64,000 bases of DNA from Nonomuraea sp. PA05 (GTDB lineage Bacteria > Actinomycetota > Actinomycetes > Streptosporangiales > Streptosporangiaceae). Positions 48,189 through 62,413 of the stretch are shown one piece after another; positions within the stretch are counted from its first letter, which is position 1; each line of letters starts with the position of its first letter. The notes beneath the pieces were generated by a model that worked only from the letters and a program-made list of their open reading frames with translations, was not told the DNA's origin and made no database searches. The translations under genes were made by a program, and so were the position numbers. The stretch is from NCBI RefSeq assembly GCF_008086045.1, contig NZ_VSEY01000023.1:1-64000 (forward strand), read 5' to 3'.

Positions 48189-51100
48189 ATGCGGATCATG
48201 CTCACCGTGATCGGCGGGCAGGGCGACCGTGACGTCGTGATCGACGGCGACGACGGCGCCACGGTGGCAGGGCTCAGCGCGGAGCTGAGCGACCACGGCC
48301 CGCTGGCGGAGGTCGTCCGGCTGCCCAAGGCCAGAGCCCCCTACGGCATGACGGGGGGCGGGACGGCAGGCGGCGACGGCCCCCGGGTGCCGCGGCCGCG
48401 CAGGCCCGAGCGGTCCGACATGGGGCCGCCCACGCTGTGGCGCGACGGCCGCCCGCTCGACCCGCTCGCCCCGGTCATCGCCGTGCTGCGCGACGGTGAC
48501 AAGGTCACGATGGAGGCCCACCTGGCCCGCGCCACCATCGTCGAGGAGCCCGGCGGGGTCGCCGAGGTGCGGGTCGTGGGCGGGCCCGCCGCCGGGGCGG
48601 TGCACCGGCTCGGGCTGGGCGCGCACGTCATCGGCGCCGACCCCATGTGCGCGATGGCCGTGGGCGATCCCGCGCTGGCTCCCGAGGCGGTGACCGTACG
48701 CGTCACGCCGGAGGCCATCACCGTGGAACGGACCTGGCAGCCGCCGGCCGACACGCCCAAGCTCAAGCTCAAGGGCCGCTGGGCGGAGGAGGTCGCCGAG
48801 CTCACCGCCCGCACGGCTGAGCGGGAGGCCGCGGCGCTCGCCGCCGGCTACGGCGAGGTTCCCGAGCTCGACGGCCGGCCGCTCACCGAGCCGGTCGAAT
48901 GGCCCGACCAGGCCGTGCTGACCTGCGGCTCCTCGGTGTTCGTGCTGACCTCGATCGAGCCGAGGGACGCCCACCTCGCGCCGCGCAAGGAGGGCGGCGT
49001 CGCCTACAACCGGCCGCCCAGGCTGCGGCGCCCCGAGCCCCGGCGCACGTTCGTCCGGCCGAAGGAGCCGACGAGGAACGAGGGGATGCGCCTGCAACTG
49101 CTGGCCGCGCTCCTGCCCGCCGTGCTCGGCGTCACCCTGGCCTTCGCGCTCAAGCAGCCGTTCTACCTGCTCGTCGCCCTCATGACGCCGGTCATCATGA
49201 TCGGCCAGTGGTGGAGCGACCGCCGCCACGGCAAGAAGCAGCACAAGAAGGCGCTCAAGGAGCACAAGGAACAGCTGCGCGCCTACGACGAGGAGGTGGA
49301 GCAGGCCCGCGTCGCCGACGAGGCCGCGCGCAGGGACGACGCGCCCGACCCCGCCCGCGTGCTGCTGACCGCCACCGGGCCGCGCAGGCGGCTGTGGGAG
49401 CGCAGGATCCACGACACCGACACGCTCCGGCTGCGCATCGGCCTCGCCGACCTGCCCGCCGACCTGGAGCTGTCCGAGGAGCAGGGCGGCCGCATCGACC
49501 CGCCGATCTGCCGGTCCGTGCCGGTCGCGCTGCCCATGCGGCGGCTCGGGGTGGCAGGCGTCACGGGTGACCGTACGGCCGCCGCCGGCCTGGCGAGCTG
49601 GCTGATAGCCCAGGCCGCCACCCTGCACAGCCCGCGCGACCTGGCCATCGTCATCGTGTCCGCGCACCCCGGCGCCGAGCGGCAGTGGGGCTGGATGCGC
49701 TGGCTGCCGCACTGCGCGCCCCGGGCGGGCGAGGACTGCGTGGCGCTCGTCGGCGCCGACCCCGACTCCGCCGCCCGCCGGGTCGCCGAGCTGGCCGCAC
49801 TCATCGACGAACGCCAGAACACCGCCATCCCCGAGCTGGGCAAGGTCCCCACCGGCTGGGACGACCTCGGCGGGCCCGAGAAGCCCACCTTCTCCTCCTA
49901 CGACGTGCGCCCCTACGACGTGCTGGTGATCCTCGACGGCGCCCAGGTGCTGCGCGGCCTGCCCAACATGCCGCAGGTGCTGCGCCAGGGGCCGCGCTGC
50001 GGCGTGTTCACCCTGGCCATCGACGAGGACCAGCGGCTGCTGCCCGAGGAGTGCCAGACCGTCGCCGACTGCGGCCCCGACGGGCTGGTCCGCCTGCGCG
50101 GCGGCGGCCTCGACGTCCTCGGCCCCCTCCTCGGCGACCTCGTCTCCCCCGCCTGGTGCGACCGCCTCGCCAGGGCGCTGGCCCCCATCCGCGACGTCAG
50201 CAGGGACGACCCCGGCGGCAACCTGCCCGACGCCGCCCGCCTGCTCGACCTCATGGGCCTGACCGTGCCCACCGGCGCCGAGCTGGCCTCCCGGTGGAAC
50301 GCGCACGGCAGCACCGAGGCGCTGATCGGCGTCGGGCCCGACGGGCCGTTCACCGTGGACCTCAGGCTCGACGGCCCGCACGGGCTCATCGCCGGCACCA
50401 CAGGAGCGGGCAAGTCGGAGCTGCTGCAGACCATGATCTGCTCGCTGGCGGTGGCGAACCGGCCCGACCAGCTCACGTTCGTGCTGATCGACTACAAGGG
50501 CGGGGCGGCCTTCAAGGAGTGCGTACGGCTGCCGCACACCGTCGGCATGGTCAGCGACCTCGACGGCCACCTGACCCAGCGGGCCCTCGACTCGCTCGCG
50601 GCCGAGATCCGGCGGCGGGAGCGGCTGCTGGCCGCGGCCGGGGCCAAGGACATCGAGGACTACACCGGGGCGGGGATGCCCCGGCTGGTGTTGATCATCG
50701 ACGAGTTCGCCGCGCTCGTGGCCGAGTTGCCGGACTTCGTGACCGGGCTCGTGGACATCGCGCGGCGCGGGCGGTCCCTCGGGATCCATCTCATCCTGGC
50801 CACGCAGCGGCCTGCCGGGGTGGTGACGGCCGACATCCAGGCGAACACCTCGCTGCGGATCGCGTTGCGGGTGACCGAGCCCGCCGAGTCTGCGGACGTG
50901 ATCGATCTGCCGGACGCCGCGCACATCTCCAAGTCGACGCCTGGGCGGTGTTACGTGCGGTCGGGGGTGGGGGCGGCGGTCGCGGTGCAGACGGCCCGGG
51001 TCGGGGGCCGCAGCCCGGTCCTGCCTGTGGTGGGCGGGAACGGCGCGGGCGGGGCGGGTGGCGGCGGCGTCGCAGGTGGCGGTTCGGCGGGCGGCGGGAG

Positions 51101-53003
51101 TCTGCGGGTGCTTGAGGTGGAGTGGCGCGCGCTGGGCAAGGCGTTGCCGCCGCCTCCGCGTCTGGACGACGAGGAGTCCACGACCACGGACCTCACGCTC
51201 GTCGCCGACGCCCTCATCGAGGCCGCCGGCCTGGCCGGCGTGCCCACGCAACCGAGCCCCTGGCTGGATCCCCTGCCTTCGCACCTCGTCCTCGACCTCC
51301 CCGGGAACCCCCCGGAGGCCGCCGGCGGGTTCGCCGAGGTGGAGCCGCTGCCGTTCGGGATCACCGACCGGCCGTGGGCCCAGGACCGGCGCCCGCTGAC
51401 GCTCGACGTCGCGCACGGCGGTCACCTGCTCATCGCGGGCGCGGCCCGCAGCGGGAGATCGACGGCGCTGCGGACCATCGCGGGCTCGATCGCCGCCCAC
51501 GCCTCCCCCGAGGACGTGCACCTGCACGCCGTGGACTGCGGCTCCGGCGCGCTGCTGCCGCTGATGGCCATGCCGCACTGCGGCGCCGTGGTGACGCGCG
51601 ACCAGCTCGACCGGGTGGAGCGGCTGCTCACCCGGCTGCGGGCGGAGGTGGGGCGCAGGCAGCAGCTACTGGCGGAGGCCGGGCACGCGTCGCTGGCCGA
51701 GTACCGGCAGGCCGGTCATCGGCTGCCGTGGCTGGTGTTCATGCTCGACAGGTGGGAGGGCTTCGTCGCGGCCTTCGAGGGCTACGACTACGGGCGGCTG
51801 ATCGAGGCGGTGCTCCAGCTTCTGCGGGAAGGGCCCGCGGTGGGGCTGAGGGGGGTCGTGAGCAGCGATCGGTCCGGGTTGCTCGGGCAGGTGTCGACCG
51901 TGTTCGATGATCGGCTGCTGTTGCGGTTGTCCGACAACACGGACTACGGGCTGGCCGGGTTCCCGCTCAAGGGGCTGCCCGCCGTCATGCCGGCGGGGCG
52001 GGCGCTGTCCATGGGCGAGCACGGGATCGTGGAGCATCACGTCGCGCTGCTGGCCGCCGACCCGGCCGGTCCGGCGCAGGTGGCGGCGCTCCAGGCGCTG
52101 GCCCGCACCGCCACCGCGCACGACGGCGCCCACGACGGCGCCCACGACGGTGCCCACGACGACGTCCACGACGACGTCCACGAGGGCGCTCACGGGGGCG
52201 CTCACGGGGGCGCGCGCGACGGCGTCCACGGGGGCGCGCGCGACGACACAAGGCGGCCGAGCCCCTCGCACGTCCTGGGCGTCGGCAGGGGCCCCTGGCG
52301 CTGGGGCGGGTCGCCGCCGTTGCGGGTGGACGCGCTTCCGATGCGCATCACCGTCCCCCAGACGATGGCCCTGGATCCCGGGTTCACGCCACCGTCACCG
52401 CTGTGGGCGCTGGTCGGCGCGGGCGGCGACGCGCTCGCGCCGCTCGGGTTCGACCTCCAGGCCCAGGGCCCCGGCGCGGTGATCGCCGGCCCGTCCCGCT
52501 CGGGCCGCTCCTCTGCGCTGCTGACGGCCGCTCGTTCGCTGATCGCCCAGGGCACCCCGGTGGTGGCGGTCGCGCCCAGGCGCAGCCCGCTGCGCGACCT
52601 GGAGGGCGCGCTGGCCGTGCTGAACGGCGACGCCACGGACCTGCGGGAGCTGGTGGCCGAGCACGAGCACTACGTGGTGCTGGTGGACGACGCCGAGCTG
52701 GTGAACCCGGACGGCCCGCTGGGGACGGCCCTGGAGGAGGTGATCCGGTCGGGTCGCGACGGAGACCACGGCCTGCTGATCGCGGGCACGACGGGCGACC
52801 TGACCGTGGCCTACCGGGGGTTCGTGGCGGAGGCCCGCAAGTCACGTACCGGATTGTTGCTGGCGGTGCAGGGGCAGACCGACGGCGACCTGTTCTCGAT
52901 CCGGCTGCCGCGCGGAGCGGGCGGCGGGCCGTCCGGGCGCGGCCTGCTCGTGACGACCGGCACCATCACCCAGGTTCAGGTGGCTTTGCCGGACAACGAC
53001 TGA
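48189..53003 (+). CDS. eccC: Type VII secretion FtsK/SpoIIIE-family ATPase with FHA-like domain (EccC/EssC-like)
   Basis: The 1,604-residue protein starts MRIMLTVIGGQGDRDVVIDG, a ubiquitin-like/FHA-type leader with GPAAGAVHRLGLGAHVIGAD (about 140-160), as in Gram-positive EssC. Two membrane helices follow (about 302-340). Three FtsK domains come next: the first is canonical (Walker A GTTGAGKS about 735-742, Walker B LVLIIDEFAALV about 832), while the second (GAARSGRST, about 1084) and third (GPSRSGRSS, about 1434) have Arg for the Walker Lys. It would drive export of WXG100 proteins. Between ATPase 2 and 3 is a His/Asp/Gly repeat region. GGAGAG precedes the ATG. It heads the operon eccC-eccB. 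Confidence 0.9.
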   Translation: MRIMLTVIGGQGDRDVVIDGDDGATVAGLSAELSDHGPLAEVVRLPKARAPYGMTGGGTAGGDGPRVPRPRRPERSDMGPPTLWRDGRPLDPLAPVIAVLRDGDKVTMEAHLARATIVEEPGGVAEVRVVGGPAAGAVHRLGLGAHVIGADPMCAMAVGDPALAPEAVTVRVTPEAITVERTWQPPADTPKLKLKGRWAEEVAELTARTAEREAAALAAGYGEVPELDGRPLTEPVEWPDQAVLTCGSSVFVLTSIEPRDAHLAPRKEGGVAYNRPPRLRRPEPRRTFVRPKEPTRNEGMRLQLLAALLPAVLGVTLAFALKQPFYLLVALMTPVIMIGQWWSDRRHGKKQHKKALKEHKEQLRAYDEEVEQARVADEAARRDDAPDPARVLLTATGPRRRLWERRIHDTDTLRLRIGLADLPADLELSEEQGGRIDPPICRSVPVALPMRRLGVAGVTGDRTAAAGLASWLIAQAATLHSPRDLAIVIVSAHPGAERQWGWMRWLPHCAPRAGEDCVALVGADPDSAARRVAELAALIDERQNTAIPELGKVPTGWDDLGGPEKPTFSSYDVRPYDVLVILDGAQVLRGLPNMPQVLRQGPRCGVFTLAIDEDQRLLPEECQTVADCGPDGLVRLRGGGLDVLGPLLGDLVSPAWCDRLARALAPIRDVSRDDPGGNLPDAARLLDLMGLTVPTGAELASRWNAHGSTEALIGVGPDGPFTVDLRLDGPHGLIAGTTGAGKSELLQTMICSLAVANRPDQLTFVLIDYKGGAAFKECVRLPHTVGMVSDLDGHLTQRALDSLAAEIRRRERLLAAAGAKDIEDYTGAGMPRLVLIIDEFAALVAELPDFVTGLVDIARRGRSLGIHLILATQRPAGVVTADIQANTSLRIALRVTEPAESADVIDLPDAAHISKSTPGRCYVRSGVGAAVAVQTARVGGRSPVLPVVGGNGAGGAGGGGVAGGGSAGGGSLRVLEVEWRALGKALPPPPRLDDEESTTTDLTLVADALIEAAGLAGVPTQPSPWLDPLPSHLVLDLPGNPPEAAGGFAEVEPLPFGITDRPWAQDRRPLTLDVAHGGHLLIAGAARSGRSTALRTIAGSIAAHASPEDVHLHAVDCGSGALLPLMAMPHCGAVVTRDQLDRVERLLTRLRAEVGRRQQLLAEAGHASLAEYRQAGHRLPWLVFMLDRWEGFVAAFEGYDYGRLIEAVLQLLREGPAVGLRGVVSSDRSGLLGQVSTVFDDRLLLRLSDNTDYGLAGFPLKGLPAVMPAGRALSMGEHGIVEHHVALLAADPAGPAQVAALQALARTATAHDGAHDGAHDGAHDDVHDDVHEGAHGGAHGGARDGVHGGARDDTRRPSPSHVLGVGRGPWRWGGSPPLRVDALPMRITVPQTMALDPGFTPPSPLWALVGAGGDALAPLGFDLQAQGPGAVIAGPSRSGRSSALLTAARSLIAQGTPVVAVAPRRSPLRDLEGALAVLNGDATDLRELVAEHEHYVVLVDDAELVNPDGPLGTALEEVIRSGRDGDHGLLIAGTTGDLTVAYRGFVAEARKSRTGLLLAVQGQTDGDLFSIRLPRGAGGGPSGRGLLVTTGTITQVQVALPDND
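52119..52247 (+). repeat. 12-bp in-frame repeat tract in eccC encoding (H-D/G-G/D-A/V)n
   Basis: About eleven 12-base units encode tetrapeptides HDGA, HDGA, HDGA, HDDV, HDDV, HEGA, HGGA, HGGA, RDGV, HGGA. The tract lies at about residues 1311-1353, in the linker before ATPase 3. Near-identical neighbouring units indicate recent slippage. Confidence 0.9.
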
Positions 53004-53075
53004 TATTCACCGGATGACCGAAACTCGGCCCATGTGTGCGCTCTATGCTGATGCCTGCGACACGTGGGGAGAGAG

Positions 53076-54485
53076 ATGCAGACCCGGAAGGACCTCTACC
53101 AGGCGCACAAGCTGATGCAGCAGCGCCTGGGGATGGCACTGCTGCAGGCTGAGCCGGACGTGCCCGAGTCCCCGATGCGGCGGCACAACGTGGCCATGTT
53201 CTGCGGGATCATCGTCGCGCTGCTGGTCACGGCGGCGTTCGGGATCTGGGGGCTGATCAAGCCCGGCGCGGCGACGAACCTGGAGGCGGCCGGGCAGCTC
53301 CTCGTGGAGGAGGAGACCGGCGCCAAGTACGTCTACAGCCAGGAGCAGAAGCGGATGCTGCCGGTGGCCAACTACGTCTCCGCGCTGCTGCTGCTGGACT
53401 CCACCAACTTCGAGGTCAGGAACATCTCGGCGGCCTCGCTCGCGAAGTACCCGCGCGGGCCGCTCGTGGGCATCGCCGGCGCCCCCGACTCACTGCCGCC
53501 CAGGGAGAAACTGGTCAAGGGCCCGTGGTCGGTCTGCGTGACGGAGGCGCCCGACGCGACCGGCACGGCGGTCCCGTACGTGACGCTCGTGGGCGGCAGT
53601 GACGTCGGCGGGACACCGATCGGCACCGGCGCGCTGGTCGTCACGGACGGCCAGGAGAGCTGGGTGGTCTGGAACGACCAGCGGATGAAGACGAGCGACG
53701 CCGGCGTGCGGGTGCTCAACGCGCGCCCCAAGAAGGTGCCCTCCACATGGATCAACGCGATCCCGTCCGGGCCCGACTTCAAGGCGCCGGGGATCCCCGG
53801 CATCGGGAAGAAGCGGCGCGGCCCCGACGGCCGCAACGCCGCCATCGGGCGCGTCTACACCGTGAAGGGCGTCGGCGGCGCTCCCGACCGCTGGTACGTG
53901 CTGCTCGCCGACGGCCTGGCCGCCCTCAACGTCACGCAGGCCACGCTGCTGCTGGAGGAGCCGGGGCTCAAGCGGGCGTACGGCGGGAAGGCGGCCATGC
54001 CGCTGGAGCTCGACGCGGCCACGGCCAACGCCGCGAGCAGCGGCCGCAGCCTCGTCGTGGGCGGCATGCCGACCAGCCTGCCCAAGGCGGTCGCGTCCTC
54101 TGCGTCGCCGCTGTGCTCCGTGTACGCCGACACCCAGAACGGCTCGGCCAAGGCGAAGCTGACGGTCGGCGGCACCATGGCGATCCCCGCACCCAGCGTG
54201 CGGGGCGATCAGGAGCACTTCGACCAGGTGCTGATGCCGTCGGGCTCGGCGTCGCTGGGCGGGCTGCTGCCGGGCGACGGGCAGAAGTCGTCCGTGCAGA
54301 CCTACTTCCTGATCAGCGATCAGGGCAGGCGGTATCAGCTGCAGTCCGGGGATCAGATCAACAAGCTGGGGTACGGGGCCGAGGACGTGGCGCCGATCCC
54401 CGGCAACCTCGTCCATCTGCTGCCCGAGGGGCCGGCGCTGGACCCGCAGGCGGCGCGTTCGCCGTTGCAGGTCACCGCGCAGTGA
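53076..54485 (+). CDS. eccB: Type VII secretion protein EccB
   Basis: The 469-residue protein begins MQTRKDLYQAHKLMQQRLGM, the EccB N-terminal pattern, then one membrane helix (about 45-67, MFCGIIVALLVTAAFGIWGL) and a large exported domain with AGQLLVEEETGAKYVYSQEQ, LVKGPWSVCV, RSLVVGGMPTSLP and C-terminal YFLISDQGRRYQLQSGDQIN and LGYGAEDVAPIPGNLVHLLP. EccB forms a dimer or hexamer crown on the outer side of the ESX membrane complex. It follows eccC by 72 bases. The usual partners EccD and EccE are not seen nearby. Confidence 0.93.
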   Translation: MQTRKDLYQAHKLMQQRLGMALLQAEPDVPESPMRRHNVAMFCGIIVALLVTAAFGIWGLIKPGAATNLEAAGQLLVEEETGAKYVYSQEQKRMLPVANYVSALLLLDSTNFEVRNISAASLAKYPRGPLVGIAGAPDSLPPREKLVKGPWSVCVTEAPDATGTAVPYVTLVGGSDVGGTPIGTGALVVTDGQESWVVWNDQRMKTSDAGVRVLNARPKKVPSTWINAIPSGPDFKAPGIPGIGKKRRGPDGRNAAIGRVYTVKGVGGAPDRWYVLLADGLAALNVTQATLLLEEPGLKRAYGGKAAMPLELDAATANAASSGRSLVVGGMPTSLPKAVASSASPLCSVYADTQNGSAKAKLTVGGTMAIPAPSVRGDQEHFDQVLMPSGSASLGGLLPGDGQKSSVQTYFLISDQGRRYQLQSGDQINKLGYGAEDVAPIPGNLVHLLPEGPALDPQAARSPLQVTAQ

Positions 54486-54522: not shown

Positions 54523-55302
54523 CTAGATGAGGGCGCTCATGCCGCCCGTGCCGGTGGTGGGGATGCTCGGCATGCCGCCGTTCTTGGGTTGCAGGGTGCC
54601 CACGCCGGTGGTCTCGTCGCCCACGTACTCCAGGTCGGCCGGCGCGAAGTCCGGCCGGGGGCGGTTCTTCTCCATGAACTGGCCCAGCGACATGCACATG
54701 AAGTTGATGCCGCCCACGAGGGCGGTGAGCATCGCCACGGACTTCATCTGCTTGCCCAGCATGCCCCTGACCACCATGCCCATGCGGGTCAGCGCGACGA
54801 AGATGGCCAGGGCGATGGCCGCCTGGGCTCCGGGCCAGGGAGCGAAGATGGGCAGGAGCTTCTTCCAGCCGGCGAGCAGCAGCATGACGGTGGCCACGAC
54901 CGTCGCCACCTCCGCGGCCCAGTGGTAGGCGGTGGCGATGCTGCCCATGCCCTGGCCCACGCCCTGGTGGTACTGCTCGGCCGTGCCTATCTGCTCGAGG
55001 AACGTGTCCACCGACTCGTTGAACGCCTCGCAGGCGGGCCCCTTCCACCACTCCTTCTCGTTGCACTCGTCGCGAAGGGTGCGCACCGCCTGCTTGATGC
55101 CCTCGAAGTCCATCTCGCCGCCGCCGTCGGGGGTGCTCCACCGTTCGGCGGCCAGCTCCATGCTGTGCGGGTTGGACACCATCGTGCCGATCATCAGCGC
55201 GATGTTCCTGGCCATCGGGTACTCGTACAACATGGCGGCCGCGGCGGTCGCCGTGGTGGCCGCGTAGATGAACTGGCCGCGGTCGGCCCCTGTGCCGGGC
55301 AT
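54523..55302 (-). CDS. WXG100-like domain protein with C-terminal membrane segments
   Basis: The 259-residue protein has a helical N-terminus with MELAAERWSTPDGGGEMDFE, ECNEKEWWKGPACEAFNESV (a WxG-type turn) and FLEQIGTAEQYHQGVGQGMG, resembling a WXG100 hairpin. It continues into two or three hydrophobic helices (about 127-146, AAEVATVVATVMLLLAGWKK; about 153-172; about 186-206) and a disordered tail ending GTGGMSALI. A membrane-bound WXG100-like protein could act as a receptor, effector or its partner. GAGAGGA precedes the ATG. It is the last gene of the minus-strand substrate run and follows the 369-residue protein by ten bases. Confidence 0.7.
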   Translation of the reverse strand: MPGTGADRGQFIYAATTATAAAAMLYEYPMARNIALMIGTMVSNPHSMELAAERWSTPDGGGEMDFEGIKQAVRTLRDECNEKEWWKGPACEAFNESVDTFLEQIGTAEQYHQGVGQGMGSIATAYHWAAEVATVVATVMLLLAGWKKLLPIFAPWPGAQAAIALAIFVALTRMGMVVRGMLGKQMKSVAMLTALVGGINFMCMSLGQFMEKNRPRPDFAPADLEYVGDETTGVGTLQPKNGGMPSIPTTGTGGMSALI

Positions 55303-55312
55303 GTGGTTCCTC

Positions 55313-56422
55313 TCAGGCCTCGCCGATCACGGGTGGGGCGATGTCGATGTCGTCCACCCAGTCGGCTTCGTCGCCGCGTACGTAGTCGGGCTTGTCCCGC
55401 TCGCTGTTCTGGTCGCCGCCTCCGCCGCCCATGGGCGGCATGAACGGCATGCCCATGCCGTTCATGCCGTTCAGGCCGCGGGCCGAGGCGGCGCCGGCCG
55501 TGGCGGCGGGCTGCTGCATGCCGCCGGACGAGACGCCCGTGGGCGAGCCGGAGGACAGGCCGGGGCCGAGCGAGGTGGTGGTGCCGGGGATGGTCGGGGT
55601 GGTGGGCGTGGCGCCCAGTTGGGTGGGGTCGTAGCCGGCCAGCCCGGTCTTGGTGGGGTCGGTCGGCAGGGTGGTGCTGGGGTCCGGGACGTTGTGGTTG
55701 AGCTGGTCCTCGATGGACGGCGTGGTGGGGAGCGCGGCGTTGGCGTCCGGGATGTTGGCCTCGGGGATGTTCGGGTCCGGGACCTGCGTGTCCGGGACCT
55801 CCGGGACCTGGGTGTCCGGGAGGTCCGTGTCGGGGACGTTGGAGTCGGGGAGGTCGGTGTCGGGCAGCTCGGAGTCGGGGAGCTGGGAGTCCGGCAGCTT
55901 GGAGTCGGGCAGCTTGGAGTCAGGGAGTTCGGAGGACGGCAGGCCGCCCGCTCCGAGGTCGCCCGCGCCCGGGATGCCGCCGGTGTCCGGGATGCCGCCG
56001 GTGTCCGGGATGCCGCCGCCGAGTGAGGACGGGTCGATGCCGCCGCCCCCGCCGCCTCCGTCGAGCCCGTAGGGGTCGGTCTGGATGACGCCGTCGTTGT
56101 CGTCGTCGGCCTTCTGGTAGTTCGCCTCGAGCTTCGTCAGCGCCGTCCGGTAGTCCGACAGGACGTCCCTGGCGGTCTTGAGCGTGTTGTGGGCGTTGTC
56201 CTTGAGCTGGTCATGGGCGTAGTTGAGACCCATGCCGATGATGCCGAAGGCGGGCGGCTCGACGCGGATGCCGCCGACGTTCTGGGCGATGGCGTTCATG
56301 TTGGGCGCCTGCTCGCCCAGCCCCTCGCCGACCTGCTTGATGCGGCCGTCCTTGAACTGGATCGTGGCGCCGGAGAGCGACGACCCGCCAGCGTACTGAG
56401 CGCCCCCGGTGTCGGTGGCCAT
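55313..56422 (-). CDS. Long T7SS substrate-like protein with PDS-repeat linker and shared C-terminal box
   Basis: The 369-residue protein has a helical N-terminal domain of about 105 residues (NMNAIAQNVGGIRVEPPAFG; DQLKDNAHNTLKTARDVLSD), fitting a WXG100-superfamily excretion hairpin. A long disordered part follows with pentapeptides LPDSK, LPDSQ, LPDSE, LPDTD (about 160-215), then a C-terminal box MGMPFMPPMGGGGG, EADWVDDIDIAPPVIGEA. The same box type ends the 435- and 478-residue proteins. I infer export by the T7SS. ATG 56422 has GGGAGG six bases before it. Confidence 0.78.
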   Translation of the reverse strand: MATDTGGAQYAGGSSLSGATIQFKDGRIKQVGEGLGEQAPNMNAIAQNVGGIRVEPPAFGIIGMGLNYAHDQLKDNAHNTLKTARDVLSDYRTALTKLEANYQKADDDNDGVIQTDPYGLDGGGGGGGIDPSSLGGGIPDTGGIPDTGGIPGAGDLGAGGLPSSELPDSKLPDSKLPDSQLPDSELPDTDLPDSNVPDTDLPDTQVPEVPDTQVPDPNIPEANIPDANAALPTTPSIEDQLNHNVPDPSTTLPTDPTKTGLAGYDPTQLGATPTTPTIPGTTTSLGPGLSSGSPTGVSSGGMQQPAATAGAASARGLNGMNGMGMPFMPPMGGGGGDQNSERDKPDYVRGDEADWVDDIDIAPPVIGEA

Positions 56423-56503
56423 GCACACCCTCCCAGTCCATAAATCACGTTATGTCCGGACCTGGCTACGATATCGACAAAAATCAACTTCTCGCGTGAA
56501 CAG

Positions 56504-56532
56504 TTGGCCAATGATCTAGACGCCTGTATGAT
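56504..56532 (+). promoter_or_regulatory. Sigma-70-type promoter of the M23 peptidase gene
   Basis: TTGGCC (56504-56509), a 17-base spacer and TATGAT (56527-56532). The ATG is at 56553, so the leader would be only about 13 bases. This is the cleanest promoter in the window. Confidence 0.7.
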
Positions 56533-56552
56533 CCGGATGGCAGCCTTTCCGC

Positions 56553-57461
56553 ATGCGGATCAAGACCCTGATAGCAGGCGCGTGCGGCTTGGCCGTACTG
56601 CCTCTCACCGGCGTGGGCACGGCGGATGCCGCAACGGCCGCCTCCACGCTGCAACTGCCGTTCCCGTGTGGCGAGACCTGGGCGGGCAGCAGCAAGAGCT
56701 CCGCCCACACCGCGGGCTACGAGATCGACTTCAACGGCAGTGCGAACGACGGCAACGCCGACCTCGGCAGGACGGTCGTGGCAGCGGGCGCAGGCACGGT
56801 CGTCATGTCGGAGTACCGGAAGACGGACGGCCTCGGCAACGTCGTCAAGATCCGGCACTCGGACGGCACCGTGACCCTGTACGGCCACCTGAACGCCCGC
56901 TCGGTCTCCAACGGCGCCACCGTCCGGCAGGGCCAGAAGATCGGCACCGTCGGCAAGTCGTCCGCCAAGTACAACCTGATCGCCCACCTGCACTACGAGC
57001 AGCGCACCTCGTCCGGCAGCATCGTGCCCGCCAAGTTCAACGGCGCCACCTTCGCCTACCCGAACCAGAAGGTGACCTCGCGCAACTGCGGCGGCGGCGC
57101 GCAGCCGCAGACCGGCAACAACAACGGCGGCGGCAGCAGCAACCCGTACTCGGCCACGCAGGTCTGCGGCTCCGGCTTCAAGCAGATCGACTCGCAGAAC
57201 CTCGGCTCCGCGGGCAAGGTGGTGCTGCTCTACTCGGCCGCCACCGGCCAGAACTGCGTCACGACGCTGCGCAACAGCGGCTCCGGCAAGGCGTCCGTGC
57301 AGGCCTACCTCCAGGTGGAGGGCAAGGCGCGCAAGAAGGACGCCGGCAGCTACCAGTACTACGCGGGCCCGGTGAAGGACACCGCCCGCAAGACCTGCGT
57401 GAAGTGGGGCGGAGCCATCGGCTCCGCCAAGTACGACAGCCCGCTCGAGCACTGCGACTGA
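56553..57461 (+). CDS. Secreted M23 family peptidase (LytM-like)
   Basis: The 302-residue protein has a signal peptide (cut near TADAATA, residue 26) and an M23 domain with H52-x6-D59 (SAHTAGYEIDF), YGHLN (H112) and HLHYEQ (H145, H147), the zinc and catalytic residues of peptidoglycan endopeptidases. After a Gly/Asn linker (about 180-198) a C-terminal domain of about 100 residues carries four cysteines (CGSGFKQIDS, NCVTTLRNSG, KTCVKWGG, EHCD), so it should be disulfide-held; its role may be binding. It lies on the plus strand within the minus-strand T7SS substrate run and ends two bases before the convergent gene's stop. Confidence 0.9.
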   Translation: MRIKTLIAGACGLAVLPLTGVGTADAATAASTLQLPFPCGETWAGSSKSSAHTAGYEIDFNGSANDGNADLGRTVVAAGAGTVVMSEYRKTDGLGNVVKIRHSDGTVTLYGHLNARSVSNGATVRQGQKIGTVGKSSAKYNLIAHLHYEQRTSSGSIVPAKFNGATFAYPNQKVTSRNCGGGAQPQTGNNNGGGSSNPYSATQVCGSGFKQIDSQNLGSAGKVVLLYSAATGQNCVTTLRNSGSGKASVQAYLQVEGKARKKDAGSYQYYAGPVKDTARKTCVKWGGAIGSAKYDSPLEHCD

Positions 57462-57463
57462 GC

Positions 57464-58771
57464 TCAGACCAGCGTCGATGGGGTGGTGCCTTCTGGCCCA
57501 CCCCACACGTCGTCGTCCTCGAAGAGGTTCGAGGAGCTCTCCCCGGCCGGGTCGCTCTCCTTGCGGCTGGTGGAGAGCGGCGCGTGCAGCATCGGCATGC
57601 CCATGCCGCCCATCCCGGCCCGGCCGGCCGCCGAGGCGGCGTTCGCCGCAGTGCCGCCGCCGCTGACCGTCCCCGCGTTGCCCGTCACGCCGCCGCCGGG
57701 GTTGCCGGTGCCGCCCATCCCCGGGCCGTTGCCCGTGTAGGTGGTGCCGTTCGGGCCGCCGGGCCCGCCCGGGACTGTGGGGTCGTAACCCGCCAGGTTC
57801 GTGGAGCCGTAGTCGCCGGGCGAGCCCGCCGACGGCGTGGAGGGCGCTGAAGGAACGGACGGCACGCTGGGATTGGCGCCGAGCGTGGTGTCGGTGAGCC
57901 CGGACGGGTCTGCGCCGCCGTAGGCGTCGCTGTCACCCACCCCGACGCCTCCCACGCCTCCCACGCCGCCCGTGCCGTCGCCGGGGTTGAGCCCGCCGTT
58001 GCCGTAGCCGCCGGGGACCTGGCCGGCGGACGACGGGTAGTCGCCGTTGACGCCAGCGGCGGACGGGCCGCCGGGGATCGAGCCGGTGTTGAACGGGGTG
58101 GTCTGGTAGGCGGGCACGTCCCCCGAGCCGAGGCTGCCGACCTGCGGGCCGTTCAGGCCGCTGTTGCCGAAGTCCGGCATCTCGGGGTCGACCACGATTG
58201 GCAGCGCCTGCTGCACGTCCACCGGCAGGTCCTCGTAGTGCTGCGCGATCCGCTCGTTGACCTCCCGCAGGTGCTGGCTGGCCCGGTCGCTGCTGCGCTT
58301 GATGCCGTAGAACGGGATCTGGTCGGCCCAGTCGATGTCGTTGTCGGAGCGGGAGTCGCGGCCCCTGCCCTCGACCACGTTGGCCTGCGCCCACTGCAGC
58401 GTGTCGCCGTACGGCTTGAGCGACCTGCCCATCCGGCCGAGCTTGGCGGCCAGCTCGACCACGCTGGCGTGCAGGCTGCGCAACTGGAGCTGCGTCTGGT
58501 ACGCCGCCGGCCCCTTGTAGTGCTCGGCCAGCTCGGCGGCCTTCGTCTTCAGGTCCGCGGCAAACTCGTTCAGCAGCGGCTCGGCGGCCTGGTAGTACAG
58601 CCCCGCGAGCTGGACCGCGGCCGGGTCCGTCGCGTCGATCATGTCCCGGATCTCACCGATCGTGTCCCGGAACATGCTCTCCATGAACCCGGCTTCCTGC
58701 ACCGACGTGTCGATCGGCTGGTTGCCGTAGCGGAGAGTGTAGGTCTGTGTCTCGGGCTGCTTGTCAGCCAT
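57464..58771 (-). CDS. Long T7SS substrate-like protein with shared C-terminal box
   Basis: The 435-residue protein has a fully helical N-terminal region (about 1-190: MIDATDPAAVQLAGLYYQAA, LRSLHASVVELAAKLGRMGR), resembling a WXG100/LXG- or PPE-like bundle, then a disordered Gly/Pro/Ser/Asn linker and an end with MGGMGMPMLHAP, NLFEDDDVWGG and STLV. The Met/Pro-Gly box and acidic Trp motif match those of its neighbours. It probably leaves the cell by the T7SS. ATG 58771 is supported by AAGAG upstream. No enzymatic motif is visible. Confidence 0.75.
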   Translation of the reverse strand: MADKQPETQTYTLRYGNQPIDTSVQEAGFMESMFRDTIGEIRDMIDATDPAAVQLAGLYYQAAEPLLNEFAADLKTKAAELAEHYKGPAAYQTQLQLRSLHASVVELAAKLGRMGRSLKPYGDTLQWAQANVVEGRGRDSRSDNDIDWADQIPFYGIKRSSDRASQHLREVNERIAQHYEDLPVDVQQALPIVVDPEMPDFGNSGLNGPQVGSLGSGDVPAYQTTPFNTGSIPGGPSAAGVNGDYPSSAGQVPGGYGNGGLNPGDGTGGVGGVGGVGVGDSDAYGGADPSGLTDTTLGANPSVPSVPSAPSTPSAGSPGDYGSTNLAGYDPTVPGGPGGPNGTTYTGNGPGMGGTGNPGGGVTGNAGTVSGGGTAANAASAAGRAGMGGMGMPMLHAPLSTSRKESDPAGESSSNLFEDDDVWGGPEGTTPSTLV

Positions 58772-58788
58772 GGCGCTCTTCTTTCCTC

Positions 58789-59253
58789 TCAGGCCTGACG
58801 CGAGGTGGCTTCCTCGGTCGCCTGCTCGGCGGTCTGGGACGTCCGCGCGATCTCCAGCAGGGCGTCGAACGACTCCTCCGCCTGCTTGTTCAGGCCGGTG
58901 TAGAGGCCGCCGGTGCTGCCGGGCTCGCCGATCAGCATGGAGTAGGCGCTGAAGGCGGCCGTCCCGTACTGCATGGCGGCCGGCCACTGGCCCATCTGCT
59001 CCTGGTTGAGCGCGCAGTGCTGCTGGAGGTCCGGCAGCGAGCCTGCGCCCGTCGGGAGCTGCGGCCCCGGCACCGGGTCGCCGGGCGCGACGGCGTACTC
59101 CGTCACCGGGATGCCGGAGGAGGTGGTGAGCTTCTTGAGCAGCTCGTGCATCTCGCCCGCGATGCGCCGCACCTCGGTGCGGTCGGTGTACGGGTCCTCG
59201 CTCTCGTCCTTGTCCGACGCTCCCGGCCAGTTCTGGTCGAGCTGGATGGCCAT
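58789..59253 (-). CDS. ESX-associated helical protein, 154 residues
   Basis: The product is cytosolic-looking and mostly helical: EVRRIAGEMHELLKKLTTSS, QHCALNQEQMGQWPAAMQYG with a WPxA turn, and QAEESFDALLEIARTSQTAE. Its length and pattern resemble the ESX small helical proteins, and it parallels the 136-residue protein at 60713 (QHIGSWPAAAAFAHSVGSTG). Both have a QxxxWPAA motif, so they are paralogues; each precedes a long substrate-like gene in transcription order or follows it. GGGAGG precedes the ATG. Confidence 0.75.
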   Translation of the reverse strand: MAIQLDQNWPGASDKDESEDPYTDRTEVRRIAGEMHELLKKLTTSSGIPVTEYAVAPGDPVPGPQLPTGAGSLPDLQQHCALNQEQMGQWPAAMQYGTAAFSAYSMLIGEPGSTGGLYTGLNKQAEESFDALLEIARTSQTAEQATEEATSRQA

Positions 59254-59263
59254 GCCGCCTCCC

Positions 59264-60700
59264 TCAGTTGATCACCGGCGAGATGGTGCTCTCCGTCGCC
59301 GAGTGCCAGTCGTCGCGTTCGCCCTTCAGGTTCGTCTGGTGCTCCTGACTCTCCTGCTCGCCTGCGGGCGCGCCGCCGCCCATCGGCATGAAGGGGTAGC
59401 CCATGCCGCCCGCGCCCGCCCTGGCCGCCGCGGCGGCGCCGGGGGCGCCCGGCTGGCTGTACGAGCCTGATCCGCCGATCACGGCGGGGGCGGCGTTGCC
59501 CGTGGGCGTGAGGTAGCTGGTCTGCGGCGTCGTGGCCGGGGTGTACGTCGTCGACGGCATGGTGGTGGTGGGCGTGGGCTGGGTGCCCGCCGTCTCCGTG
59601 GCCCTGGGGTCGTGGGTCTCGGCCCCGGTCTGTGTGGTGCGCTCGGGGTCGGTGGTGTTGCTGTCGATCACGGACGGCGTGGTGCCGTCGGTGCCGTCGC
59701 CCTGGCCGGCGGGCGTGGTGGCGGAGCCCGAGCCATCGGAGGAGGACCCGGAGCCGTCTGAGCCGTCGGAAGAGCCCGAGCCGTCCGAGGAGCCCGAGCC
59801 GTCCGAGGAGCCCGGCGTGTCGGCGCCCGGCTGGTCTCCCGCGCCCGCGCCCGAGCCCGAGCCCGAACCCGAGCCCGAACCCGAGCCCGAACCCGAGCCG
59901 GAGGAGGACCCGCCCGGCCCGCTGGAGCCGCTGGAGCCGTTCGAGCCGCTGGAGTCGCCGACGCTGTCCCAGCCCGACGAGCCGCCGGAGGACCCGCCGC
60001 TGCCTCCCGAGTCGCCGAAGGTGTAGGGCGTGTCCTGGTCCATCGACGGCAGATCCCGGTCGCCGGGGTCCGTGGCCGGCGTGACCGTCGGCAGGTCGAT
60101 GGTCACGCTGTCGGGGATCTGGAAGTCGTACAGGTCGACGATGTGCTGGTTGAGCGTCTCCATCGCCCGCCTGGCGGCCTGGTCGTCCAGCTCGGACGCC
60201 TGCGGGGTGGGCCCGGGCGTGGGCTGGTCCTGGCCGATCGTCGGGGACGTGGTGGGCTCCGCACTGGCGGAGGCCGTCGGCGACGGGCCGGGCGAGGGCT
60301 GGGGCTCGGCGTCGGACCGCTGGTTCTGGTTGGCCGCCGCCCGCACGTCCTCGATGGCCGTCGGCAGGTAGTCGCGCCCGTACAGGGTGAGCGCCTCGGA
60401 CATCTTGGTCATCGCGGCGGCCAGCTCGGTGCCGCTCGCGTGCAGCATCTGCAGCGCGCGCTGCGTCGTCGCGGCAGCCTCCGACCGCCAGGCGTCGTTG
60501 AGCGCGACGCCGATGTCGGGCAGCGAGTCGGCCACCGCCTTCACGGCGTCGGCCACCCGGCCGTACGTCATGCCGCGGTCGTGCACCTCCATCGGGGAGG
60601 TGCCGTCCAGCCACTGCTGGATCTGCTCGCGGGAGGCGGTGACCGCACCGGCGCTCGGGCGCCTGGAGGGGTCGCGGATGTCAACGGTCCGCTCAGCCAC
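59264..60700 (-). CDS. Long T7SS substrate-like protein with Ser/Gly-rich linker and shared C-terminal box
   Basis: The 478-residue protein has a helical N-terminal domain (about 22-125: REQIQQWLDGTSPMEVHDRG, AVADSLPDIGVALNDAWRSE, MLHASGTELAAAMTKMSEAL), which fits a WXG100-type hairpin, a second helical patch (about 168-190), then a very long disordered linker with (SG)n and SDGSGS units and a C-terminus MGYPFMPMGGG, ERDDWHSATE and SPVIN. The final box is shared with the 369- and 435-residue proteins. GTG 60700 begins MAERTVDIRD. Export by T7SS is inferred. Confidence 0.78.
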   Translation of the reverse strand: MAERTVDIRDPSRRPSAGAVTASREQIQQWLDGTSPMEVHDRGMTYGRVADAVKAVADSLPDIGVALNDAWRSEAAATTQRALQMLHASGTELAAAMTKMSEALTLYGRDYLPTAIEDVRAAANQNQRSDAEPQPSPGPSPTASASAEPTTSPTIGQDQPTPGPTPQASELDDQAARRAMETLNQHIVDLYDFQIPDSVTIDLPTVTPATDPGDRDLPSMDQDTPYTFGDSGGSGGSSGGSSGWDSVGDSSGSNGSSGSSGPGGSSSGSGSGSGSGSGSGSGSGAGAGDQPGADTPGSSDGSGSSDGSGSSDGSDGSGSSSDGSGSATTPAGQGDGTDGTTPSVIDSNTTDPERTTQTGAETHDPRATETAGTQPTPTTTMPSTTYTPATTPQTSYLTPTGNAAPAVIGGSGSYSQPGAPGAAAAARAGAGGMGYPFMPMGGGAPAGEQESQEHQTNLKGERDDWHSATESTISPVIN

Positions 60701-60712
60701 TGGCTCTCACTT

Positions 60713-61123
60713 TCAGCTATCGCCCCTGACGGGGTTGGTGCGCTCATAGACCGCGGCGCTGTCCCTGATCGCCTGCACGACCTTCTGGCAGCACTCGACG
60801 TACTCCTGGTAGAGGGCCGCCAGGCGCTGCCCGCGGCCCTCCAGGGACACCTGACCACCGGGGTCGGCCCCGGTGGAGCCGACGCTGTGCGCGAACGCGG
60901 CGGCGGCGGGCCAGCTCCCGATGTGCTGCTGGCTCAGGTCGAAGTACCTGGTGAGGGCCTCCACCGCGCCCGTGCCGCCGTCCTTGGTGCCGCCCGGGCC
61001 CTGCGTGGGCACCAGGGCGATCTCCAGGTCGTCGGCGACGGCACGCATCTTGCCGACGTTGTAGAACAGGTCGGCGTCGGTGTCGTCCAGCCCGCGCCAC
61101 GGCTCGGGTTCGAGCTCCCCCAT
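60713..61123 (-). CDS. ESX-associated helical protein, 136 residues
   Basis: The product starts MGELEPEPWRGLDDTDADLF and contains VGKMRAVADDLEIALVPTQG, DLSQQHIGSWPAAAAFAHSV and a C-terminal helix VECCQKVVQAIRDSAAVYER. It shares the QxxxWPAA motif with the 154-residue protein at 58789. It may be a chaperone-like or co-secreted WXG100 relative for the long protein encoded 12 bases downstream. A GAGGAGAGG site is well placed. Confidence 0.78.
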   Translation of the reverse strand: MGELEPEPWRGLDDTDADLFYNVGKMRAVADDLEIALVPTQGPGGTKDGGTGAVEALTRYFDLSQQHIGSWPAAAAFAHSVGSTGADPGGQVSLEGRGQRLAALYQEYVECCQKVVQAIRDSAAVYERTNPVRGDS

Positions 61124-61191
61124 GATCCTCTCCTCACGCGTTCGGCCACCGCGGGCGGTGGCCGAAGAAAGAACGACGGCGGAGTGACGGC

Positions 61192-61506
61192 TCAGCCGTC
61201 GTACCACATCGCCTTGTTGCGGGCCTCCGCGGCCTGGTAGTTCTGGTTGGCGATCTGGACGGCGCCGCGCAGCTCGACGAGGTTCGCGCTCATGGTGTTG
61301 GCGGCGTTGTCCCACTTGATCTTGTACCGCTCGAACTCGGCCTTGGCGCCCTCGACGTCGCCGTCCCAGTTCTCCTGGAGCTGCTGCAGCAGCTTGGTCA
61401 CGAGGTCGTCGAGAGCCTGGTCAAAGGCCTTGACGATGTCCTCGTAGTCCTTGGCGGCCAAGTCCATGTTCTTGAAGTTGACCTTTGTGAAATCCATCTC
61501 AGGCAT
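61192..61506 (-). CDS. WXG100 family protein (EsxA-like)
   Basis: The 104-residue product is a helical hairpin with the WxG turn at W47-D48-G49 (QENWDGDVEGAKAEF) and the T7SS signal YxxxD/E at Y90-E94 (QNYQAAEARN). AGGGGG lies before the ATG. It is 12 bases downstream of a second WXG100 gene, so they should form a heterodimer that is exported by EccC. Confidence 0.93.
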   Translation of the reverse strand: MPEMDFTKVNFKNMDLAAKDYEDIVKAFDQALDDLVTKLLQQLQENWDGDVEGAKAEFERYKIKWDNAANTMSANLVELRGAVQIANQNYQAAEARNKAMWYDG

Positions 61507-61518
61507 GTCGGTCCCCCT

Positions 61519-61842
61519 CTACTTGACGTCCGCGTTGATGAGCGACTCGACCTTGCCGACACCGGCCATGACGTCCTCGTCGTTCATGCTGTACGTGATG
61601 GCGTTCGCGCCCATCTTCTCGGCGATGCCCTCGAGGTCCTGCCGGACGGCGCGCATCTGCGCGTCCCAGCTCTCCATGATGGTGCGGAACCTGTTGGCGG
61701 CCGGGCCGAGCCAGTCGGCGTTGAGCAGACCGTTGGAGGTGGTCTCCACGGCGACCCGCAGACCCTCGATGAACTGGGCCGTGTCAGTGACGTTTCCCGC
61801 CGCCAGGTTGATCTGGGAGCTCGACGCCCCGTAATAGCTCAC
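61519..61842 (-). CDS. WXG100 family protein (EsxB-like)
   Basis: The 107-residue product has the turn W44-L45-G46 (NADWLGPAANRFRTI), flanking helices and Y84-x3-D88 (AITYSMNDED), a YxxxD motif. GTG 61842 has GGAGG six bases before it. It is the first gene of the esx pair and is translated just before its partner. The 127-base region upstream is AT-rich and should hold the operon promoter. Confidence 0.93.
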   Translation of the reverse strand: MSYYGASSSQINLAAGNVTDTAQFIEGLRVAVETTSNGLLNADWLGPAANRFRTIMESWDAQMRAVRQDLEGIAEKMGANAITYSMNDEDVMAGVGKVESLINADVK

Positions 61843-61969: not shown

Positions 61970-62413
61970 TCAGAGGTCGAGGTCGCGGCGGATGCGGTCC
62001 AGCTCGCCCATGACGTTCTCGAACGCCCTGTCGTAGTTGGCCTCCGCCTGCTGGATCGGCTTGAGCAGCGCCTGCGGGTCGTTCATGAGGCGTGACGGGG
62101 TGGAGGCCGCGCCGAACAGCTCGGCCATGAGATCCTCGGCGGCGCGCTGCAGATCAGCCGTCGCGGCGCTCACGGCTTCCTTGATCTTCTCCGACAGCTC
62201 CACCGCCGGCAGGCGCATGGCCTTGGGGTGGATGTCCAGGGTGCGGATGCCCTCCTGGGCGTACTCGACGACGACCATGCCGTCGGCGTCCTCACCTCTG
62301 CCGGCCAGCAGCGGCATGCGCCTCTGCAGCTCGTCGGACTTGGCGAGCTGCTCGTCGACGCCGCGCAACAGACGTTCCACGTCGATGTTGGCGAAGTCCC
62401 CGAAATCCGTCAC
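61970..62413 (-). CDS. YbaB/EbfC family protein
   Basis: The 147-residue product has DELQRRMPLLAGRGEDADGM, VVVEYAQEGIRTLDIHPKAM and LSEKIKEAVSAATADLQRAA, the YbaB/EbfC fold plus a C-terminal helix. YbaB proteins are small nucleoid-associated dimers; divergent forms are common in ESX-type loci of actinomycetes, where they are thought to be Esp-like factors. Its GTG start overlaps no other gene. A second YbaB-like gene lies at 63726 on the other strand. Confidence 0.88.
   Translation of the reverse strand: MTDFGDFANIDVERLLRGVDEQLAKSDELQRRMPLLAGRGEDADGMVVVEYAQEGIRTLDIHPKAMRLPAVELSEKIKEAVSAATADLQRAAEDLMAELFGAASTPSRLMNDPQALLKPIQQAEANYDRAFENVMGELDRIRRDLDL

What the first reader, a model, noticed from the sequence alone, without database searches (positions are those of the whole stretch)
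55313..60700. Three long, unrelated-looking proteins share a C-terminal box
The 369-, 435- and 478-residue proteins have helical heads and disordered linkers of different make-up (PDS pentapeptides, Gly/Pro, Ser/Gly) but end alike: Ala-rich helix, then GMGMPFMP, GMGMPML or GMGYPFMP, then an acidic patch with one Trp (ADWVDD, DDDVWG, RDDWHS), and PPVIGEA, PSTLV or SPVIN at the terminus. This may be a new export or retention signal, or the docking point for a common partner such as the M23 peptidase or EccB.
Basis: seen in the sequence. Interest (0 to 1): 0.65.

Follow-up and report, generated by a model that had tools for sequence, protein, structure and literature searches.

The report
Shared C-terminal tag of secretion substrates
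Three probable secretion substrates of a soil actinobacterium end in the same short conserved tag, which also ends other such proteins across actinobacteria, including EspB-type proteins of mycobacterium-like genomes, and whose job is still unknown.

Summary
The three proteins (55313-56428, 57464-58771, 59264-60700, all minus) end in one homologous ~60-residue box: Ala-rich stretch with Arg, GMPFMPM, Gly/Glu/Arg spacer, a core like [W/Y]L-x-ED-x-D-x-W, then P-x-V-I-G. An HMM trained without the window finds all three; shuffled sequences give 0 hits, reversed ones 1 of 3765. In 59 whole genomes 114 of 123 box matches lie within 20 kb of eccB. The window is Nonomuraea; 31 of 38 box-bearing loci there hold exactly three boxes.

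A DNA pattern for the core found 53 ORFs in 13 named genera and a MAG, 52 with 10-13 residues to the stop; 41 of the 53 also match the whole box HMM. The same box ends EspB-family proteins of a mycobacterium-like genus.

The heads are not unrelated: two are PPE/WXG100-like, one EspC/PE-like. In the usual arrangement one member of each two-gene pair carries the box. Best reading: a C-terminal export-coupling tag of type VII substrate pairs, perhaps removed by mycosin as in EspB. That function is inferred. The M23 peptidase is not a general partner. I found no description of the box as a shared module in the papers searched.

The parts
55313..55516 (-). box of protein A (C-terminus)
   Evidence: E 6.3e-30 with a model that includes it, 5.8e-18 with a model trained without the window
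55313..56428 (-). protein A, 371 aa (369 from the inner ATG): EspC/PE-like helical hairpin with YxxxD, repetitive LPDS linker, box
   Evidence: weak PF10824 EspC hit (18.2 bits, cut-off 23.5); Y followed by D/E at +4 in 8 of 9 aligned rows, window included
54523..55302 (-). 259-aa protein with a hydrophobic stretch and a WKG triplet (by eye), directly after A; likely pair partner of A
   Evidence: family TM259 lies within 700 bp downstream of 32 of 32 A-type boxed genes; 10 bp in the window
57464..57661 (-). box of protein B (C-terminus)
57464..58771 (-). protein B, 435 aa: PPE/WXG100-like head, Gly/Pro linker, box
   Evidence: WXG100_2 22.1 bits (cut-off 27); model with head pLDDT about 80-92 at residues 40-130; the 27 best Foldseek hits are all WXG100, PPE or EspB chains
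58789..59253 (-). small protein (154 aa) directly before B; likely PE-like partner
   Evidence: 17 bp upstream; family sB154, 13 of 41 loci
59264..59455 (-). box of protein C (C-terminus)
59264..60700 (-). protein C, 478 aa: WXG100/PPE-like head, Ser/Gly linker, box
   Evidence: WXG100_2 18.2 bits (cut-off 27); same head HMM family as B
60713..61135 (-). small protein (140 aa) directly before C; likely PE-like partner
   Evidence: 12 bp upstream; family sC140, 60 hits in 37 of 41 loci
61192..61506 (-). WXG100 protein, no box
   Evidence: PF06013 34.4 bits, over cut-off
61519..61842 (-). WXG100 protein, no box
   Evidence: PF06013 40.5 bits, over cut-off
61970..62413 (-). YbaB-family protein; a YbaB gene also follows the EspB genes examined
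   Evidence: PF02575 28.2 bits, cut-off 25.5
53064..54485 (+). EccB
   Evidence: PF05108 E 3e-84
48105..53003 (+). FtsK/SpoIIIE-type ATPase with weak FHA-like N-terminus; second ATPase of the locus
   Evidence: PF01580 E 1.3e-60, PF16697 E 0.0015 below cut-off
56553..57461 (+). M23 peptidase between A and B on the other strand; not a regular part of the module
   Evidence: PF01551 E 4.3e-22; family in 13 of 41 loci

Best explanation
The box is a C-terminal module of one class of actinobacterial type VII secretion (T7SSa) substrates. Each substrate is most likely a pair of helical proteins of the PE/PPE or EspC/EspA kind. One partner carries a long disordered linker that ends in the box. In this locus there are three such pairs (140 aa + C, 154 aa + B, A + 259 aa) beside an unboxed WXG100 pair. 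EspB, where PE and PPE halves are fused in one chain, carries one box too. The pair is selected through its helical head. I propose that the box, held out on its flexible linker, is a second contact made during export, with the T7SS machinery or with the other substrates, and couples their secretion. After passage it may be cut off by the locus mycosin, as the C-terminal region of EspB is. Shown here: the box, its C-terminal position, its T7SS linkage in Nonomuraea, its spread, its presence on EspB-family proteins and on both head types. Inferred: the pairing of the proteins, that the box acts in export, what it binds, and that mycosin removes it outside mycobacteria.
For: Box homology and controls. 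T7SS linkage in whole genomes: 114 of 123 matches within 20 kb of an EccB start; in 36 Nonomuraea genomes 33 have both, 2 neither, 1 (63% complete) box only, 0 EccB only. Core pattern in genome contigs: 58 stretches, 53 with an in-frame ORF, 52 of those with 10-13 residues to the stop. A boxed or core-bearing ORF stands next to an ORF of the mycosin (S8) HMM, among family-matched ORFs, in 12 of 21 stretches from genera other than Nonomuraea and Glycomyces; 5 of the 12 are Actinomadura or its MAG-like neighbour and not independent. EspB link: L095, L160 and L162 match the box HMM at 8.7e-8, 1.5e-10 and 2e-9, and are EspB by Pfam EspB_PE and EspB_PPE over cut-off, each followed by a YbaB gene; 10 of 43 box members match NCBIfam EspB_fam (best E 0.0086), at positions 403-455 of 459 in the one member whose positions are shown. 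In EspB the C-terminal region is removed by MycP1, and removal favours oligomerisation (passages of PMC9811218; PMC10140165); dead MycP1 leaves secreted EspB mainly full length (PMC5082899). Nearest functional precedent: a conserved acidic 15-residue tail on two otherwise dissimilar PPE68 C-terminal domains; removing the last 10 residues blocks EspE secretion but not EsxA (PMC9765416). The box is more conserved than head or linker in both family alignments, though the B rows were partly picked by the core pattern. A's box is as close to the boxes of the WXG-headed proteins of its locus (0.235) as those are to each other (0.232), although the heads differ.
Against: No experiment and no structure of the box: both models leave it without confident structure. 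Four EccB-bearing genomes outside the genus show no box at the threshold used (G036, G042, G051, G056), so T7SS does not need it. The mature secreted EspB lacks its C-terminal region, so the box is not needed after export there. [quoted passage not shown] Boxes of one locus are not significantly more alike than boxes of different loci (A against the others: 0.2345, permuted 0.2290, p 0.125), so there is no clear sign of co-adaptation to a local partner. The Met/Pro part of the box is largely missing in some genera with the core (a double-proline element in 1 of 17 Glycomyces and 0 of 5 Actinomadura ORFs), and 12 of 53 core ORFs do not match the whole box HMM. Motifs of the pair model are incomplete: YxxxD/E in the last 45 residues of only 11 of 52 small partners, WxG in 46 of 70 WXG-type heads.
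Confidence: 0.55

Rival explanations
1. The box acts after export: it holds the protein at the cell surface or controls assembly (for example keeps EspB-like proteins monomeric until mycosin cuts it off).
For: Full-length EspB does not bind phospholipid and C-terminal removal favours heptamers (passages). Boxed genes often lie next to a mycosin-like gene (12 of 21 stretches). Long disordered linkers could reach into the wall.
Against: Most boxed proteins lie outside the mycobacteria with their outer membrane, so the receptor would have to be common to different envelopes. By eye I saw no anchoring signal in the window proteins; no search for one was run. Not tested.
Confidence: 0.25
2. The box is only an inherited C-terminus of one old paralogous substrate family, kept by descent and composition, with no common function.
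For: B- and C-type heads are one family by HMM (127 ORFs hit by both head models). Boxes keep to their type (A-A 0.41 against A-others 0.23).
Against: Linkers diverge while the box does not. The Trp column is W in 84 and W, F or Y in 100 of 102. The box is shared by EspC/PE-like and PPE-like heads, and its core sits at the end of ORFs in 13 named genera.
Confidence: 0.15
3. Phospho-tag: a Thr just before the core is phosphorylated by the locus kinase and bound by the FHA-like domain of the second ATPase (48105-53003).
For: A protein kinase gene lies in the same T7SS region (L052:7114-9363, Pkinase E 8e-20). The ATPase has a weak FHA-like match (PF16697 E 0.0015). Thr lies within 6 residues before the core in 53 of 70 WXG-headed boxes.
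Against: Only 9 of 32 A-type boxes have that Thr and window A has none there. The FHA-like match is below cut-off.
Confidence: 0.05

Closest known systems
EspB family (NCBIfam NF052471; Pfam PF18625 + PF21856)
   Same: Members from a mycobacterium-like genus end in the same box; PPE-like domain; T7SSa substrate; YbaB gene beside it; disordered linker.
   Different: EspB fuses PE and PPE halves in one chain. Here the halves are separate genes, there are three boxed proteins per locus, and one box sits on an EspC/PE-like protein. The passages I read treat EspB's C-terminus as low complexity and do not mention a conserved module.
PE/PPE and EspC/EspA substrate pairs of ESX systems
   Same: Small helical partner plus WxG-type partner with long C-terminal extension; YxxxD in protein A.
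   Different: Pfam PE, PPE and EspC cut-offs not met by A, B or C; no EspG chaperone over cut-off in the genome; a shared C-terminal box is not a defining PE/PPE feature (recalled).
PPE68/PPE68_1 acidic C-terminal tail (ESX-1)
   Same: Conserved acidic short tail at the end of otherwise dissimilar C-terminal domains; needed for secretion of another substrate (PMC9765416, passages).
   Different: I did not compare the sequences; whether it is the same box is not known.
AAWKG family protein (NCBIfam NF038047), in Streptomyces-like genomes
   Same: L094 and L164 match it weakly and end in the box.
   Different: Matches are below the family cut-off (37.9 and 28.8 against 70 bits).

Membership tests
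EspB (ESX-1) | PE and PPE domains in one chain (PF18625 + PF21856) | tested here: not met
   None of A, B, C matches either model at E 1 or better
EspB (ESX-1) | C-terminal segment of EspB_fam (positions 403-455 of 459) | tested here: inconclusive
   Box of window A matches it at E 0.03, 10 of 43 box members at E 1 or better, best 0.0086; reverse test: EspB proteins L095, L160 and L162 match the box HMM at 8.7e-8, 1.5e-10 and 2e-9
EspB (ESX-1) | C-terminal processing by mycosin | not testable with these tools
   A mycosin-like S8 protease lies in the same region (L052:9462-10604, PF00082 E 5e-44)
WXG100/T7SS substrate superfamily | PF06013 or PF25547 over the curated cut-off | tested here: not met
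   B 22.1 and C 18.2 bits on PF25547 (cut-off 27), 12.5 and 13.9 on PF06013 (cut-off 27.3)
WXG100/T7SS substrate superfamily | WXG100-type helical hairpin fold | tested here: inconclusive
   The 27 best Foldseek matches of model B are WXG100, PPE or EspB chains, best E 0.027, none under 0.001; VIA Z 8.8 for PPE41, but BAR domains reach 9.6
EspC-type substrate (protein A) | PF10824 over cut-off | tested here: not met
   18.2 bits against 23.5
EspC-type substrate (protein A) | YxxxD/E after the hairpin | tested here: met
   present in window A and in 8 of 9 aligned A-type rows; by regular expression over residues 81-150 in 21 of 32 A-type ORFs
T7SSa locus | EccB, EccC, EccD, mycosin-like protease, WXG100 pair | tested here: met
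   EccE not sought
PE/PPE pair | EspG chaperone | tested here: not met
   no PF14011 match over cut-off in the genome, best 19.1 bits against 27

The most novel reading that the evidence does not exclude
The box is a widespread second export signal of actinobacterial T7SSa: a C-terminal, linker-borne tag, one per helical substrate pair whichever partner carries it, that docks the substrates of one system to a common site and makes their secretion interdependent, then is shed by mycosin. EspB's removable tail would be one case of it.
Probability: 0.3. Interest if true: 0.85.

Novelty: new variant of a known kind. Interest (0 to 1): 0.6.

Why it matters
The C-terminal part of EspB is disordered, is cut off by mycosin, and its role is poorly understood. 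Finding that the end of EspB-type proteins is a conserved module shared with other substrates turns it into a defined target: one Trp and an ED core to mutate. It offers a lead on why T7SS substrates depend on each other for secretion, and gives a sequence tag for finding T7SS substrates in harmless soil actinobacteria.

Tried and rejected
M23 peptidase as the common partner: family present in 13 of 41 loci only, some of them through a domain it shares with the locus kinase; rejected. Co-adaptation of boxes within a locus (sign of a local receptor): not found, p 0.125. Box as a folded domain: neither AlphaFold model gives it confident structure; model A has pLDDT 43.5 overall. PDB sequence search with the box alignment: one hit at E 1.9, taken as chance. 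EspG chaperone: none over cut-off. FHA/phospho-tag: kept as a rival with low weight. Pfam and NCBIfam models of the box: Pfam gave only weak chance-like matches (PPE-SVP in 3 of 43, best E 0.08, and four single ones), NCBIfam only the weak EspB_fam match and one single other. In the fold comparison a family that is not listed is not excluded; EspA/EspE did not appear among the 50 rows shown.

Limits: the phylum scan scored at most 21 candidates a genome, so its 4 of 296 (the window's own genome among the 4) is a lower bound. The 41 Nonomuraea loci were fetched because most carried box matches, and are cut at 20 kb or less, so locus counts are conditional; the linkage test rests on whole-genome. 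Fisher values (p 0.0048 within the genus, 4.8e-11 over 59 genomes) ignore relatedness. Genes were called by a simple GC3 rule, so some starts are too long; this explains part of the 11 'none'. Head types come from HMMs iterated on the same loci and may have drifted. The 102 boxes were found by the box HMM itself, though not by the Trp pattern. For Glycomyces the T7SS link was not shown; the 8-kb stretches there show WXG-like, EspC-like and YbaB matches, no Ecc match, and the Met/Pro element is mostly missing. L124, close to L123 in sequence, did not match the box HMM although L123 did; I did not find out why.
Full report
What was checked. The window is part of contig C48 of a 13.1-Mb genome. 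The three proteins are at the stated places and end as quoted. The alignment of the three boxes has ten invariant columns, among them GxxGMGxPxxP and the Trp.

Is it more than chance. A box HMM from these three rows, iterated over the ORFs of 41 Nonomuraea loci, converges on 102 ORFs. The HMM match ends 5 to 17 residues before the C-terminus, within 15 in 99 of 102. Shuffled proteins give 0 of 3765 hits, proteins with only the last 70 residues shuffled 0 of 2040, reversed proteins 1 of 3765. A model from the 99 boxes outside the window recovers all three window boxes. In the 102 aligned boxes the first Pro of the Met/Pro stretch is kept in 93 of 102, the second in 96 of 100, an acidic residue of the core in 101, the Trp position is W in 84, F in 14 and Y in 2, and a residue near the end is I, L or V in all 102.

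Link to type VII secretion. With the 43-row alignment A2, 34 of 59 genomes have a box at E 0.01, all in the window's genus. Of 123 matches 114 lie within 20 kb of an EccB start on the same contig; a rough chance figure is 0.5%. The nine others are three from a 63%-complete genome without EccB, two on contigs without EccB in draft genomes that have it elsewhere, one 30 kb away, one boxed pair 333 kb away, and two weak partial matches. Among 36 Nonomuraea genomes 33 have box and EccB, 2 have neither, 1 (the incomplete one) has box only, none has EccB only. Four genomes outside the genus have EccB without a box (G036, G042, G051, G056), so the box is not obligatory.

Anatomy of the locus. Of 38 loci with boxes, 31 have exactly three. 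The order is broadly conserved: WXG100 pair, small protein + boxed protein, a second small protein + boxed protein at a variable place, EspC-like boxed protein + 259-aa protein, EccB, ATPase. All 102 boxed ORFs match a head model of the WXG100 kind: 32 EspC/PE-like (type A), 70 WXG100/PPE-like (models iterated on the same loci). All 32 type-A genes have the 259-aa family within 700 bp downstream. Of 70 WXG-headed boxed genes, 47 have an HMM-matched small partner as nearest upstream ORF, 10 an unassigned small ORF, 2 a WXG100 gene, 11 none. By eye 8 of the 10 unassigned are one further small family, 6 of them with WPAA and 6 with Y-x-x-x-E. Some of the 11 'none', window B among them, come from over-long starts. 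So the usual unit looks like a pair with one box. Against this, YxxxD/E is found near the end of only 11 of 52 small partners and WxG in 46 of 70 heads. In the window the spacings within the pairs and between C and the next pair are 10-17 bp.

Heads. Pfam gives only sub-threshold hits: EspC for A, WXG100_2 and WXG100 for B and C. The AlphaFold model of B has a confident helical head (pLDDT about 80-92 at residues 40-130) and a linker and box without confident structure. Its 27 best Foldseek matches are all WXG100, PPE or EspB chains, though none reaches E 0.001. VIA-align gives PPE41 Z 8.8 and EspB Z 8.2, but unrelated BAR domains reach 9.6, so the fold evidence alone is not decisive. The model of A is poor (pLDDT 43.5) but shows a hairpin. 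Window A has YxxxD after the hairpin, as do 8 of 9 aligned relatives with D or E.

Spread. A DNA pattern for W-L/F/S-x-E-D-D-D-V-W-G matched 58 stretches of genome contigs. In 53 it is in frame in an ORF, and in 52 of these it stands 10-13 residues before the stop; in one (Kineosporia) 46. Genera with such an ORF: Nonomuraea, Planomonospora, Glycomyces, Dactylosporangium, Actinomadura, Micromonospora, Fodinicola, Streptomyces, Kineosporia, Nocardioides, Actinoplanes, Rugosimonospora, Catenuloplanes, and one MAG. Of the 53 ORFs 41 match the whole box HMM at E 0.01, in 12 of the 13 named genera; the 12 failures are 9 Glycomyces, 1 Micromonospora, 1 Fodinicola and 1 Actinomadura. A double-proline element before the core is in 17 of 18 Nonomuraea but 1 of 17 Glycomyces and 0 of 5 Actinomadura ORFs. 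So the acidic Trp core at the very end is the widest part, and the Met/Pro part varies. In genera other than Nonomuraea and Glycomyces the boxed or core-bearing ORF is next to an ORF of the mycosin HMM, among family-matched ORFs, in 12 of 21 stretches, and next to a YbaB-matching ORF in 4. Whole-genome samples give 12 of 60 in a mycobacterium-like genus and 31 of 81 in a Streptomyces-like genus at E 0.001; some of these matches are partial. The phylum sample gave 4 of 296, the window's genome included, with a shortened first look.

EspB. Four loci of the mycobacterium-like genus were fetched (L095, L160-L162); L161 is a short fragment that I did not classify. The other three match EspB_PE and EspB_PPE of Pfam over cut-off, carry the box, and are followed by YbaB genes. 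They reach EspB_fam at E 7.9e-42, 3.6e-35 and 6.3e-55, under its strict cut-off. Conversely, 10 of 43 isolated boxes match EspB_fam weakly; for the one whose positions are shown they are the last ones, 403-455 of 459. So the box is the end of EspB-type proteins. I did not compare with EspB of the tubercle bacillus in any call.

What the literature says. I read passages found by term search, not whole papers. PMC9811218 and PMC10140165 describe EspB's C-terminal region as flexible, cut by MycP1, its removal favouring oligomers and lipid binding, and its role as little understood; the EspK C-terminal domain was judged not to bind it. PMC5082899: EspB was then the only known mycosin substrate. 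PMC9765416: two dissimilar PPE68 C-terminal domains share a conserved acidic 15-residue tail, and loss of the last 10 residues blocks EspE secretion but not EsxA secretion. PMC3227618 and PMC11217815 do not mention such a box in the passages shown. The 2007 paper by McLaughlin and co-workers on EspB export is not held; I rely only on its citation in PMC9811218. Searches listed no paper whose title or abstract start describes a shared C-terminal box; most subscription papers and preprints are not covered.

How it may work. Shown: a conserved C-terminal module behind a disordered-looking linker, on two head types, tied to T7SSa loci in Nonomuraea and present on EspB-type proteins. Inferred: it is a second contact for export, on a tether long enough to reach the machinery while the head is held elsewhere. 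The PPE68 result is the nearest precedent for a short acidic tail that another substrate's secretion needs. [quoted passage not shown] Boxes are type-specific (A-A 0.41, A-others 0.23) and not matched within a locus, which fits a common receptor or three separate contacts, and gives no support for a rapidly co-evolving local partner.

Verdict. It is not unique to this locus: it is an unnamed module of actinobacterial T7SS substrates that includes the end of EspB-type proteins. Its function is open and easily testable.

Noticed in passing
48105-53003 and L052:1709-5692: The locus has two different FtsK-type ATPases, one next to EccD like a canonical EccC and a 1632-aa one with a weak FHA-like N-terminus next to EccB; 12 of 41 Nonomuraea loci hold ORFs over 400 aa of both kinds.
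   Followed up: partly
56553-57461 and L052:7114-9363: The M23 peptidase's C-terminal domain (residues 197-285) is 50.5% identical to the end of the locus protein kinase (residues 643-732), a shared domain.
   Followed up: partly
L052:5981-7063: A 360-aa protein joins a WXG100 head to an SLT transglycosylase domain: a likely T7SS-exported wall hydrolase without a box.
   Followed up: no
63287-63601: A 104-aa protein is homologous to the head of protein A (83 bits) but has no linker or box: a boxless relative in the same locus.
   Followed up: no
L066, L069: Boxed protein plus small partner 30 and 333 kb from the nearest EccB found on the contig: orphan substrate pairs.
   Followed up: no
L055:9641-19547: Another locus of the same genome has a WXG100 gene and a 1405-aa FtsK ATPase with a clear FHA domain (PF00498 41.2 bits); no box was found in L055.
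   Followed up: no
L137:1470-5573: A Kineosporia ORF of 1367 aa carries the core with 46 residues behind it, so the free C-terminus may not be strictly needed.
   Followed up: no
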